From Mycobacterium sp. NBC_00419 (GTDB lineage Bacteria; Actinomycetota; Actinomycetes; Mycobacteriales; Mycobacteriaceae), in NCBI RefSeq assembly GCF_036023875.1, contig NZ_CP107931.1, forward strand, positions 3,348,001 through 3,412,000: a stretch of 64,000 nucleotides of DNA. The letters are read 5' to 3'. Below are positions 34,826 through 39,565 of this stretch, in pieces; the first letter of the stretch is position 1, and each line of letters starts with the position of its first letter. A program made the position numbers and the translations under genes. The notes under the pieces are model-generated. The model was not told the origin of the DNA. It saw only the letters and a list, made by a program, of their open reading frames with translations, and made no database searches.

Positions 34826-36678
34826 CCTTTGGGGGCGTTGAAGTCCACCGAGACAAACTTCTTGGCGAACAGCTCGGCCATCGCGTCGGCGGGCAGCGGG
34901 CGCGACAGCAGGAAACCCTGGGCGCGATAGCAGCCGTGCTGCAGCAGGGTCAACGCCGCAGTTTCGTGTTCCACACCCTCGGCAACCAACTCCAGCTCGA
35001 AGGCTTCCGCGAGCGCGATGACCGCGCGGACGATCGCCAGATCGCCGGGGTTCGACCCCAGGTCCAACACGAAGCTCTTGTCGATCTTGAGGGTGTCGAC
35101 CGGCAGGGACTTGAGGTGGGTCAGCACGCTGTAGCCGGTGCCGAAGTCGTCGATCGCGACCTGCACTCCGACTTCCTTGAGCCCGGCAAGTGTGGTCCGC
35201 GTGGTCTCGATGTCTTGCACCACAACACTTTCGGTGATCTCCAGGCACACCGACTTGCCGTCGAGCCCGAACTCCTCGATGGCATCCCGCACCGACTCGA
35301 CGAATCCGTCCGTGACGAGCTGTACCGGTGAGACGTTGAGTCGCAGCGTCGCGTTCTCGCCGATGCCCTGGGCATGCCAGCGGCTGAACTGTTCGCACGC
35401 AGTGCGCATGACCCAGCGGCCCAATTCGCCTGCCAGGTTGATGGATTCGGCGACGTGGATGAACGAGTCCGGGAGCAACAGTCCCCGGGTCGGGTGCTGC
35501 CAGCGCACCAGAGCCTCGGTCGCCAGTACCTCACCGGTGCGCATGTCGACTTCGGGCAGGTAGTGCAGTATCAGCGAACCGGTCTCGATGACGCCCTGCA
35601 GGTGCAATTCGATGTCGTTGCGGAACTCGCTGCTCAGCGACATCTCGTCGGTGAAGACCGCGATCTTGTTGCCGCCGGCATTTTTGGCGTTGAGCACCGC
35701 CTGATCGGCACGGCGTAGCAGATCTGAGGTGGTGTCCCGTCCTGGTGATCCCAGTGCGACGCCGATACTGACTGTGCGGGTGAGCATTTCGCCACCGATC
35801 GCCACCCGCTCACGCAGCAGCGCTTGCAGCCGGTACGCCAGCGACTCGGCCTCAGCGGCACCCATCGGAGCGGCAGGAACCACCACGAACTCGTCGCCAC
35901 CGAGGCGTGCGATCACGTCGGCTTCGTTGGTCTCTTCCCGCAGCCGCTCGGCGAAGGTCCGAATGAACCAGTCACCGGCGTGGTGGCCGAGATAGTCGTT
36001 GATGGCCTTGAGCCGGTCGAGATCGAGGAACAGCGCCGACACCGGGCCCGGCTTGCCGGTGCGCAGGCGCTCGTCCAAATGCGCCAGCAACGCCCGGCGG
36101 TTACTGAGGCCGGTCAGGTCGTCGTGCTCGGCGAGGTAGCGCAGCTGGTCTTCGGCGACCACACGTGCCTGCACCTGGGCGAACAGCGATGCAATCGCCC
36201 GGAGCGCGTTGAGTTCTTCCGGCGACCAGTCCTTGATGCCGAACTTGATGAATCCCAGCGCCCCGGTGGTGACGTCGCCGGACAACAGCGGCACCGAGGC
36301 CAGCGAGGGCAGCGCGTAGCCGGCCTCCGCGACGCGGCGCTGGTAGTCCTCGGCCTCTTCTTCCACCGGCTCGGGGGAGAAGAACACCGGTTCCTTGGCA
36401 TGCTCAGCAGCCGCGAAGATCGGGTCCGCGTCGGCGAAATAGACCACTCCGAGCGGATCCGGATCCGGAACTTCGGGCCGCGGCGGCCACTCGGCGACCA
36501 GCTTGGTGGCGCGGATCGAATGGTCGTTGTAGCGAAGGAAACTGACATCGACGCCGAAGGTCGCCACCAGTTCGGCGAGCACATCACGACTGACTTCCGC
36601 CGACGTGGCCGAGGTCGCCGCCATCAACTGGGTGGCGACCTCGGTGACGAGATTGTCGAGGCGGTGCGGCACGTTCAT
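34819..36678 (-). CDS. dcpA: GAF-GGDEF-EAL c-di-GMP synthase/phosphodiesterase
   Basis: 619 residues from ATG at 36678; an open frame runs further upstream but into the preceding gene. GAF domain about residues 20-160, GGDEF domain with an intact ARLGGDEFVVVPA, and EAL domain with intact TEALVRWQHP and IDDFGTGYSVLTHLKSLPVD. Intact active-site motifs suggest both synthesis and breakdown of c-di-GMP. The layout and length resemble M. tuberculosis Rv1354c and M. smegmatis DcpA (MSDGC-1). Translationally coupled to the MoeY-like gene (ATGA). Confidence 0.88.
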   Translation of the reverse strand: MNVPHRLDNLVTEVATQLMAATSATSAEVSRDVLAELVATFGVDVSFLRYNDHSIRATKLVAEWPPRPEVPDPDPLGVVYFADADPIFAAAEHAKEPVFFSPEPVEEEAEDYQRRVAEAGYALPSLASVPLLSGDVTTGALGFIKFGIKDWSPEELNALRAIASLFAQVQARVVAEDQLRYLAEHDDLTGLSNRRALLAHLDERLRTGKPGPVSALFLDLDRLKAINDYLGHHAGDWFIRTFAERLREETNEADVIARLGGDEFVVVPAAPMGAAEAESLAYRLQALLRERVAIGGEMLTRTVSIGVALGSPGRDTTSDLLRRADQAVLNAKNAGGNKIAVFTDEMSLSSEFRNDIELHLQGVIETGSLILHYLPEVDMRTGEVLATEALVRWQHPTRGLLLPDSFIHVAESINLAGELGRWVMRTACEQFSRWHAQGIGENATLRLNVSPVQLVTDGFVESVRDAIEEFGLDGKSVCLEITESVVVQDIETTRTTLAGLKEVGVQVAIDDFGTGYSVLTHLKSLPVDTLKIDKSFVLDLGSNPGDLAIVRAVIALAEAFELELVAEGVEHETAALTLLQHGCYRAQGFLLSRPLPADAMAELFAKKFVSVDFNAPKGR

Positions 36679-38816: not shown

Positions 38817-39565
38817 ATGCCACTCCCGTACTGCATGCCGAAGCCGCTGAACTCGTCGGACAGCGCGGCCAGCATGCGCATTTCCTTGACGATCTTCGCC
38901 AGCTGCTTTGGCGCGGCGTGGTTGGCGAACGTGCGCCGATCCCAGAACATCAACTTGGTGCGGTAGCGGTCACTCGGGTAGGCGGCGGCGGGCACCTTGC
39001 TCGCCACGACACCACCGGATGAGCTCCACCGATCGAGCACGTGTGCCGCGGCAGTGGCCATGATGAACTGCGCTCCGAGCAACGACATTGTGGGGAACGC
39101 GGTCCGTGCGAAGGTGTTGGTCAACGAACCGGCCCGCTCCGGGTCGTCGGACACCCACGCGGACTTCATCTCGACCACGCCGAACGGCAGTCGGTCGGTG
39201 ATCATCTTGCGGACCATATCCTGGCCGGGCTGTCCTTCCCATTCGACGATGGCGTGCGACTCGTCGGCATCGAAGTACGGACCCTTGGCGCGCAGGCCGC
39301 CCACCACCCGACCGTCGGCGTCCAGCGCGGTGTAGAACAGCGTGGTGTCGCGGCCGTCGCTGAAAGAATCCAGGTCCAGGGCAGCTTCCACACCGTGCTT
39401 CTGGTAGTTGCGCTGTGCTCCCTGCAGGTAGTCTTGCCAGAGAGTGGGTTCGCTGTCGGGCTGAGCCAGCACGATGGTGCACCCCGTGTCCTCGTCCTGC
39501 CAGCTAATCGTTTCAGGCAGTTGGTACAGGGTTTCCTCATGAACGGCCAGCACGGAAGTGTTCAT
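38813..39565 (-). CDS. Acyltransferase-like (GNAT/N-acyl amino acid synthase-type) protein
   Basis: 250 residues, ATG at 39565. The sequence YQKHGVEAALDLDSFSDGRDTTLFYTALDADGRVVGGLRAKGP reads like the N-terminal part of FeeM/LuxI-type N-acyltransferases, where an Asp and a Ser/Arg-type motif precede DGRVVGxLR. The later part has YPSDRYRTKLMFWDR. No full motif check could be made. First gene of an operon with moeY-like and dcpA-like genes; GTGA overlap with the former. A long palindrome lies 57 bases upstream (39622-39652). Confidence 0.6.
   Translation of the reverse strand: MNTSVLAVHEETLYQLPETISWQDEDTGCTIVLAQPDSEPTLWQDYLQGAQRNYQKHGVEAALDLDSFSDGRDTTLFYTALDADGRVVGGLRAKGPYFDADESHAIVEWEGQPGQDMVRKMITDRLPFGVVEMKSAWVSDDPERAGSLTNTFARTAFPTMSLLGAQFIMATAAAHVLDRWSSSGGVVASKVPAAAYPSDRYRTKLMFWDRRTFANHAAPKQLAKIVKEMRMLAALSDEFSGFGMQYGSGM

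What the first reader, a model, noticed from the sequence alone, without database searches (positions are those of the whole stretch)
36675..39565. Acyltransferase-like, E1/nitroreductase fusion and c-di-GMP enzyme in one coupled operon
Three minus-strand genes overlap by stop/start sequences (GTGA, ATGA). The first resembles FeeM/LuxI-type N-acyltransferases, the second fuses a ThiF-like fold (with a modified nucleotide loop) to a nitroreductase domain, the third has GAF-GGDEF-EAL with intact motifs. Such gene order suggests a small molecule or peptide made or modified by genes 1 and 2 and tied to c-di-GMP levels through gene 3. The E1 plus FMN-reductase pair resembles the enzymes that make azole rings in some natural products. 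The pairing of genes 2 and 3 is known from M. tuberculosis (Rv1355c/Rv1354c); the pathway is not known to me.
Basis: partly seen in the sequence, partly recalled or inferred. Interest (0 to 1): 0.75.

Follow-up and report, generated by a model that had tools for sequence, protein, structure and literature searches.

The report
Tryptazolone operon with c-di-GMP enzyme
Three overlapping genes in a mycobacterium appear to make a small ring-shaped molecule from tryptophan and an acyl chain, by a pathway published in 2025, together with an enzyme for the signal c-di-GMP; similar pairings with differently built c-di-GMP-making enzymes in other bacteria suggest that the molecule and the signal work together.

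Summary
In detail: three minus-strand genes overlap by GTGA and ATGA. Gene 2 is a ThiF-nitroreductase fusion of the Rv1355c family. Gene 1 is assigned as TrzA by operon position and co-occurrence; its fold was not obtained. Gene 3 is a DcpA-like GAF-GGDEF-EAL enzyme with intact catalytic motifs.

My addition concerns the c-di-GMP link, which that paper's text mentions once, for M. tuberculosis. In 150 genomes of the window's order, TrzA and TrzS occur in the same 23; 22 of these hold DcpA, each within about 6 kb of a TrzS. Linked copies occur in Mycobacterium, Nocardia, Rhodococcus, Jiangella and an unnamed family. Several trz loci without DcpA lie beside a diguanylate cyclase of different architecture. 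So oxazolone synthesis looks repeatedly tied to c-di-GMP synthesis; no functional link is shown. Exceptions: some P450-associated TrzS loci, a few other trz loci, and DcpA copies without trzAS.

The parts
38813..39565 (-). gene 1, trzA-like: predicted CoA-dependent N-acyltransferase for L-tryptophan, 250 aa
   Evidence: Directly upstream of trzS with GTGA overlap; found in the same 23 of 150 genomes as TrzS and in none of the other 127; no family or PDB sequence match; function inferred from the published orthologous gene pair (PMC12856293)
36675..38816 (-). gene 2, trzS: ThiF-like cyclase fused to FMN-dependent oxidase, 713 aa
   Evidence: NF005901 1022.9 bits; ThiF 94-232, Nitroreductase best stretch from 375; D208 and R531 at 100% and Q641 at 66% of aligned homologues, placed by offset on the published D217, R540, Q651
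34819..36678 (-). gene 3, dcpA/Rv1354c-like GAF-GGDEF-EAL c-di-GMP synthase and phosphodiesterase, 619 aa
   Evidence: Pfam GAF, GGDEF, EAL; PDB 5yrp EAL chain 410.7 bits over 244 residues; motifs intact; activity inferred
38813..38816 (-). GTGA stop/start overlap of genes 1 and 2
   Evidence: NTGA overlap in 46 of 57 adjacent pairs
36675..36678 (-). ATGA stop/start overlap of genes 2 and 3
   Evidence: NTGA overlap in 13 of 62 adjacent pairs
39620..39700 (-). promoter-like region of gene 1: TGGAGT-18-GATACT, followed by a 33-bp inverted repeat (39620-39652)
   Evidence: GATACT invariant in 13 aligned upstream regions, TGGAGT in 12 of them (not L029); inverted repeat; the reading as a promoter is mine
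33982..34818 (+). convergent neighbour, 278 aa, weak FAD-binding match below the cut-off
32482..33805 (-). two ScbR-like TetR regulators (32482-33144 and 33128-33805)
   Evidence: NF041196 151.7 bits (cut-off 150) and 134.1 bits; near DcpA with or without trzAS

Best explanation
The operon makes an N-acyl tryptazolone and co-expresses an enzyme that sets c-di-GMP. [quoted passage not shown] Step 2 (likewise): the ThiF domain of gene 2 uses ATP to close the oxazolone ring. Step 3 (likewise): the FMN domain desaturates it with O2. Step 4 (inferred from linkage only): the product, or the acyl-tryptophan, and c-di-GMP act in one circuit. The form I favour is that the N-terminal sensor domain of the partnered diguanylate cyclase (GAF in DcpA, a membrane domain or a GAF-like domain in the others) responds to the product, directly or through a partner, so that tryptophan, acyl-CoA, ATP and O2 supply are read out as c-di-GMP. 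My odds: enzymology of genes 1-2 0.9; some functional link with c-di-GMP 0.75; direct sensing by the cyclase 0.3.
For: Gene 2 is a member of the Rv1355c family and keeps the residues shown to matter, as far as they can be placed. Published TrzA and TrzS activity (PMC12856293). TrzA and TrzS in the identical 23 of 150 genomes. DcpA at E <= 1e-100 in 22 of those 23 and in 4 of the other 127. Of 25 TrzS genes with both halves in those genomes (one split by a contig end, two with an in-frame stop flagged in the matched stretch), 23 lie within about 6 kb of a DcpA (my reading). Of 69 full-length TrzS loci from named records, 62 hold DcpA (over 350 bits) in the stretch held, 47 of them directly downstream; L029 is a 63rd, cut by the stretch end. 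One genome (G070) has two TrzS, each with its own DcpA. In 5 named loci (L014, L029, L042, L047, L052) TrzS lies about 5 kb from DcpA beside a P450-type gene, yet TrzA stays by DcpA. DcpA tree: linked copies run through Jiangella, family f4, Rhodococcus, Nocardia and Mycobacterium; 'unlinked' needs 2 changes. Other cyclases by trz genes: membrane-GGDEF in Williamsia, beside ThiF-only genes in two Rhodococcus drafts, and an annotated GGDEF gene in 6 of 6 Rhodococcus plasmid records (two of them with the same protein); soluble GGDEF in G003 and, 5 kb off, G016. In 5 genomes, 4 of 7 trz loci without DcpA have another GGDEF gene within 3 kb, 0.2 expected.
Against: No call shows a functional link. 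DcpA occurs without trzAS in the stretch at 9 of 34 DcpA places (one, G037:C35, near a contig end). Four named full-length TrzS loci (L020, L027, L038, L064) and 3 of 3 Mycobacterium-group plasmid loci opened have no GGDEF match in the stretch. In the 5-genome count 3 of 7 loci without DcpA have no GGDEF gene within 3 kb. Among 20 DcpA copies near but not directly behind TrzS, some have changed EAL sites (DD kept in 15, the later Glu in 14). GAF identity is the same in linked and unlinked DcpA (0.579 and 0.575), although GGDEF and EAL differ (0.607 and 0.656 linked, 0.653 and 0.757 unlinked). A review gives GDP as ligand of the M. smegmatis DcpA GAF domain (PMC8846402, passages). Co-occurrence counts are not corrected for kinship. 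The 5 genomes of the GGDEF count were picked after odd loci had been seen in them. The fold of gene 1 was not obtained, and no identified Rv1356c, M. smegmatis or RHA1 TrzA sequence was at hand to compare.
Confidence: 0.75

Rival explanations
1. Co-expression without contact: tryptazolone is a stress or envelope lipid and c-di-GMP a separate output of the same stress regulon; the genes share a promoter but the molecules do not interact.
For: A conserved promoter-like region upstream of trzA would suffice to co-express; the paper proposes stress physiology; GDP is the reported DcpA GAF ligand.
Against: Does not explain why loci without DcpA carry differently built diguanylate cyclases that cannot share a transcript with TrzA (divergent in L121, convergent with TrzA in L063, L127, L129).
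Confidence: 0.3
2. c-di-GMP controls the pathway: the cyclase tunes trzAS expression or TrzS activity, so the oxazolone is an output of c-di-GMP. (This is one form of the functional link, so its odds overlap with the best explanation.)
For: In BCG lacking the neighbouring phosphodiesterase gene BCG1419c (by numbering Rv1357c), the trzA orthologue BCG1418c is up (log2 0.867 in a table of PMC11126594; listed at 1.999 in a fold-change table of PMC6005825; passages read).
Against: By numbering, BCG1418c and the likewise raised BCG1420 flank the deletion, so a local effect is as likely; I did not look for c-di-GMP-binding motifs in TrzA or TrzS.
Confidence: 0.3
3. Receptor model: the ScbR-like TetR pair beside the operon (32482-33805) senses the oxazolone, a five-membered ring with an alkyl chain, like a gamma-butyrolactone receptor.
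For: NF041196 151.7 and 134.1 bits; no AfsA match in this genome, while the same search rings in 11 of 98 genomes of the class; the best copy of the regulator at 33128-33805 lies within 4 kb of DcpA in 9 of the 12 genomes (of 150) that hold it (my reading).
Against: The pair sits by DcpA also in genomes without trzAS (G101, G117), about 21 kb off in G037, G091, G145, and the regulator is not found at E <= 1e-35 in five trzAS genomes of the genus (G006, G081, G113, G133, G141). Two further ScbR-like genes lie elsewhere in this genome. The best match barely passes the cut-off.
Confidence: 0.12
4. The linkage is only inherited synteny, with no function.
For: Most loci are from related genera; TrzS and DcpA distances correlate (Mantel r 0.81, 41 loci), as inheritance would give; the regulators next door behave like plain synteny.
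Against: Flanking genes differ between clades while the three genes stay together; rearranged loci keep TrzA by DcpA; differently built cyclases recur; plasmid-labelled copies keep a cyclase in 6 of 6 Rhodococcus records and in Nocardia farcinica, though not in the 3 Mycobacterium-group ones opened.
Confidence: 0.15

Closest known systems
trzAS of M. tuberculosis, M. smegmatis and R. jostii RHA1 (PMC12856293)
   Same: Acyltransferase gene upstream of a ThiF-FDO fusion of the Rv1355c family; catalytic residues present by offset; next to an Rv1354c-type gene as in M. tuberculosis
   Different: Another species; acyl chain unknown; the gene directly upstream of gene 1 is a divergent SpoU-type methylase, not an EAL gene as rv1357c in M. 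tuberculosis; this genome has 18 GGDEF matches
tyzACB of M. tuberculosis (PMC10404671, passages and one section read)
   Same: Acyltransferase, ThiF and FDO activities giving an acyl oxazolone
   Different: Separate ThiF and FDO genes, tyrosine and C12 chain; flanked by cysK1, cysE and mmpL9, no c-di-GMP gene named in the section read
oxzAB of Pseudoalteromonas rubra (as described in PMC10404671 and PMC12856293)
   Same: Acyltransferase plus ThiF-nitroreductase fusion
   Different: Different ThiF subcluster per PMC12856293; tyrosine and phenylalanine products; proteobacterium
DcpA / Rv1354c (PMC2994820 and PMC8846402, passages)
   Same: GAF-GGDEF-EAL, about 620 aa; 5yrp EAL chain aligned over 244 residues (that this chain is M. 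smegmatis DcpA is recalled)
   Different: In the passages read it is treated as a c-di-GMP enzyme without mention of its trz neighbours
FeeM and LuxI-type acyltransferases
   Same: TyzA and OxzA models are reported to share this fold (PMC10404671)
   Different: No sequence similarity found for gene 1; fold not tested here

Membership tests
TrzS (Rv1355c family) | Full-length match above curated cut-off | tested here: met
   1022.9 bits, cut-off 476, residues 12-709
TrzS (Rv1355c family) | Asp of the ThiF adenylation site (D217 in M. smegmatis) | tested here: met
   D208, 100% of aligned homologues; mapped by an offset of 9, as the M. smegmatis sequence was not at hand
TrzS (Rv1355c family) | FDO residues R540 and Q651 | tested here: inconclusive
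   R531 100% and Q641 66% of aligned homologues; mapped by offsets of 9 and 10; R529 is also conserved and cannot be excluded as the R540 equivalent
[quoted passage not shown]
   Needs an enzyme assay
TrzA | Gene directly upstream of trzS and co-occurring with it | tested here: met
   GTGA overlap; same 23 of 150 genomes
TrzA | Sequence homology to Rv1356c | not tested
   No identified Rv1356c sequence was fetched
FeeM/LuxI-type acyltransferase fold | Fold match | not tested
   Structure server full at 15 of 15 requests (first, last)
FeeM/LuxI-type acyltransferase fold | Sequence match to Pfam, NCBIfam or PDB acyltransferases | tested here: not met
   No relevant match for gene 1 or, by profile and member scans, its alignment of 41
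DcpA (bifunctional GAF-GGDEF-EAL) | Domain order and catalytic motifs | tested here: met
DcpA (bifunctional GAF-GGDEF-EAL) | Orthology to the M. smegmatis enzyme | tested here: inconclusive
   EAL part aligns with 5yrp over 244 residues; identity of 5yrp as M. smegmatis DcpA is recalled
ScbR-family autoregulator receptor (neighbouring TetR genes) | NF041196 cut-off of 150 bits | tested here: inconclusive
   151.7 for one, 134.1 for the other

The most novel reading that the evidence does not exclude
Acyl oxazolones of the trz type are signals read by dedicated diguanylate cyclases: trz clusters carry their own cyclase whose sensor domain (GAF, membrane domain, or GAF-like) responds to the product, and different lineages have recruited differently built cyclases for the same task. 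This would be an acyl-amino-acid-derived signalling system wired into c-di-GMP, and would give the DcpA family of mycobacteria an upstream input.
Probability: 0.3. Interest if true: 0.88.

Novelty: new member of a known kind. Interest (0 to 1): 0.6.

Why it matters
The physiological role of mycobacterial oxazolones is called a major unresolved question by the group that described them (PMC12856293, Discussion), and the only DcpA input I met in the passages read is GDP. Recurrent pairing of the two, with differently built cyclases in different lineages, turns a one-sentence remark about M. tuberculosis into a prediction that can be tested in laboratory strains (M. smegmatis, R. jostii RHA1) in which the product was detected.

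Tried and rejected
Fold of gene 1: 15 requests were answered 'busy', so neither structure prediction nor fold search was run. Profile and member searches for an acyltransferase signature found only chance-level hits.

Receptor idea (ScbR-like TetR pair): taken up, lowered after searches showed that the pair goes with the DcpA locus in Mycobacterium rather than with trzAS.

Operator idea: the core of the inverted repeat at 39620-39652 has one match in the window at up to 3 mismatches, itself. It is not kept as such in L007, whose TrzA is 94% identical, or in the other relatives aligned. The region upstream of the TetR pair shows no such repeat. Not pursued.

GAF as a ligand-tuned, more conserved domain in trz-linked DcpA: no difference found (77 linked against 9 unlinked rows; 8 rows of divergent or second copies were left out before the count).

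ATGA coupling of genes 2 and 3 as a conserved feature: rejected, 13 of 62.

DcpA as the only c-di-GMP enzyme: rejected for this genome, 18 GGDEF matches at E <= 1e-15.

Literature: 'oxazolone' with 'c-di-GMP' and 'Mycobacterium' missed the key paper, which writes cyclic di-GMP; repeated with 'cyclic di-GMP' it gave that paper and three others that by listing are unrelated.

Counting notes: mixes named loci, unnamed loci and the window; four unnamed loci repeat named ones (identical TrzS rows), one of them (L098/L043) enters both adjacency counts twice. L097 was relabelled from unlinked to linked by hand, because its TrzS is cut by the contig end. Nine of 78 named loci were left out of the 69 because TrzS was cut, frame-broken, ThiF-only or distant. 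Of 12 plasmid records with TrzS-like genes, 11 were opened; H2 was not. The match of a cluster to P450 or methyltransferase was checked by Pfam for one member each.
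Full report
What is there. The three genes and the two overlaps are as described. Gene 3 lies outside the coordinates given, but for the overlap. Gene 2 matches the NCBIfam equivalog 'Rv1355c family protein' over nearly its whole length with 1022.9 bits, with ThiF and nitroreductase domains. Its altered nucleotide loop GLSVGH is a family trait, and D141, D143, N149, R152, K164 and D208 in the ThiF part are at 97% or more in the 93 aligned rows. 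Gene 3 has GAF, GGDEF and EAL domains and complete catalytic motifs. Its EAL part aligns with PDB 5yrp over 244 residues. Gene 1 has no family match. The genus is inferred from the nearest relatives, which are labelled Mycobacterium and Mycolicibacterium.

What it is. The orthologous pair was characterised in December 2025 (PMC12856293; abstract, Results and Discussion read; figures and supplements not seen). TrzA acylates L-tryptophan; TrzS cyclises with ATP and then desaturates with O2 to an N-acyl tryptazolone. Asp217, Arg540 and Gln651 of M. smegmatis TrzS were tested there. By offsets of 9, 9 and 10 they fall on D208, R531 and Q641 here; R529 is also conserved, so the second is less sure. 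The chain length in this species cannot be told; it differed between the three species studied. The same paper remarks in one sentence that the M. tuberculosis genes lie next to rv1354c and rv1357c, predicted cyclic di-GMP genes, and leaves the role of oxazolones open. It was the only relevant paper in searches for oxazolone with cyclic di-GMP and for tryptazolone; of the five papers with tyrazolone I opened two. The library holds open-licence papers only.

Linkage in an even sample. In 150 genomes of the order (at least 95% complete), TrzA and over-cut-off TrzS occur in the same 23. DcpA at E <= 1e-100 occurs in 26: in 22 of the 23, and in G101, G117, G145 and G045 without trzAS. In all 22, a TrzS and a DcpA are on one contig within about 6 kb, by reading the coordinates; in G141 TrzS is split by a contig end. 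G070 has two TrzS genes, each next to its own DcpA. The two TrzS genes without a nearby DcpA are in G003 and the second one of G016. Starting from DcpA instead, 25 of 34 DcpA places have TrzS in the stretch (20 kb or less) and 9 do not; one of the nine is close to a contig end. In the DcpA tree eight of the nine unlinked copies fall together and the label 'unlinked' needs two changes, while linked copies run through Jiangella, family f4, Rhodococcus, Nocardia and Mycobacterium (quick method, some long branches). The counts are not corrected for kinship beyond that. In DcpA copies directly behind TrzS the EAL sites are intact in 64 of 64 and GGDEF is letter-perfect in 59 of 64 (four AGDEF, one GGDKF); in 20 copies further off some EAL sites are changed.

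Linkage in named loci. The scan with gene 2 gave 78 loci; 69 hold a full-length TrzS. DcpA is in the stretch in 62 and directly downstream in 47. The seven others: L029 (DcpA cut by the end; complete in L090, which has the same TrzS and contig length), L067 (DcpA pieces only), L063 (another cyclase), and L020, L027, L038, L064 (no match). The gene order changes: TrzA-TrzS-DcpA in the window and many others; TrzA-P450-TrzS-DcpA in L039; TrzA-DcpA with TrzS about 5 kb off beside a P450-type gene in L014, L029, L042, L047 and L052; TrzS, a methyltransferase-type gene, a P450-type gene and DcpA in L015, L019, L022, L032, L037, L049 and L054. TrzS proteins with a P450 in the stretch largely group in the tree (34 rows, 4 changes).

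Other cyclases. At several loci without DcpA, other diguanylate cyclases appear. In Williamsia (L063) and on six of six Rhodococcus plasmid records the order is GGDEF gene, TrzA on the opposite strand, TrzS. TrzA was confirmed by profile in L063, L127 and L129; in the other four records the gene is annotated 'hypothetical protein'. Two of the six records carry the same GGDEF protein accession. The GGDEF proteins of L063, L127 and L129, and those beside ThiF-only genes in two Rhodococcus drafts (L076, L077), have five or six hydrophobic segments by a simple hydropathy scan, and L063 is 44-49% identical to the other four. In G003 (L121) a GGDEF protein without such segments and with a GAF match below the cut-off lies about 0.6 kb from TrzA, divergent; a 67% identical one lies about 5 kb from TrzA in G016 (L120). 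Five genomes carry 14 to 34 GGDEF matches each. Among their 11 trz loci, counted by me have a GGDEF gene within 3 kb where 0.3 is expected; among the 7 without DcpA, 4 do (G125:C37, G125:C5, G059:C7, G003 near 3531 kb) where 0.2 is expected. The 3 that do not are G059:C2, G003 near 3890 kb and G016 near 1014 kb. Some of these loci have TrzA or ThiF alone. The genomes were chosen after odd loci had been seen, so these figures are a guide only.

How it most likely works. Steps 1 to 3 (acylation, cyclisation, desaturation) are shown for orthologues and inferred here. That the product and c-di-GMP act in one circuit is inferred from linkage. Which way the signal flows is open. I favour sensing by the cyclase's N-terminal domain, because a sensor-like N-terminal part is what the three kinds of cyclase share besides GGDEF. 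But GDP is the ligand reported for the DcpA GAF domain (PMC8846402, passages), and GAF identity is the same in linked and unlinked copies. In BCG without the phosphodiesterase gene next door, the trzA orthologue rises, which fits control by c-di-GMP but may be a local effect of the deletion.

Novelty. The window's operon is a new member of a known kind. The breadth of the c-di-GMP linkage, and its repetition with differently built cyclases, is what I did not find in print in the searches named above.

Noticed in passing
window 32482-33805: Tandem TetR genes best matched by the ScbR gamma-butyrolactone-receptor family, in a genome with no AfsA match; two more ScbR-like genes lie elsewhere in the genome (G000 956110 and 5034705).
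   Followed up: partly
window 33982-34818: Small protein with a weak FAD-binding match, convergent with DcpA; relatives of it lie next to DcpA in many of the Mycobacterium-group loci. Function unknown.
   Followed up: no
window 39620-39652: 33-bp inverted repeat (13-nt arms, 7-nt spacer) just downstream of the conserved promoter-like motif of trzA, not kept as such in the nearest relative L007.
   Followed up: partly
L039 4062-5498; L014 4438-5973; L029 3611-4474 and relatives: A branch of TrzS is accompanied by a cytochrome P450-type gene, and at some loci a methyltransferase-type gene, suggesting tailored tryptazolones.
   Followed up: partly
L124-L126 (Mycolicibacterium and Mycobacterium plasmids): P450-linked TrzS genes on plasmids with a TetR regulator and dienelactone hydrolase but no TrzA or GGDEF match in the stretch.
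   Followed up: partly
L134 (Streptomyces plasmid, 4002-6916): A longer ThiF protein related to the TrzS ThiF part, overlapping a beta-ketoacyl-ACP synthase gene: perhaps another acyl source.
   Followed up: no
L105, L106 (G117, G101): DcpA without trzAS still lies beside the ScbR-like pair and the small PAS protein, in inverted order.
   Followed up: partly
L067 (Mycobacterium uberis): Pieces of DcpA-like sequence, apparently decayed, beside a full-length TrzS match.
   Followed up: no
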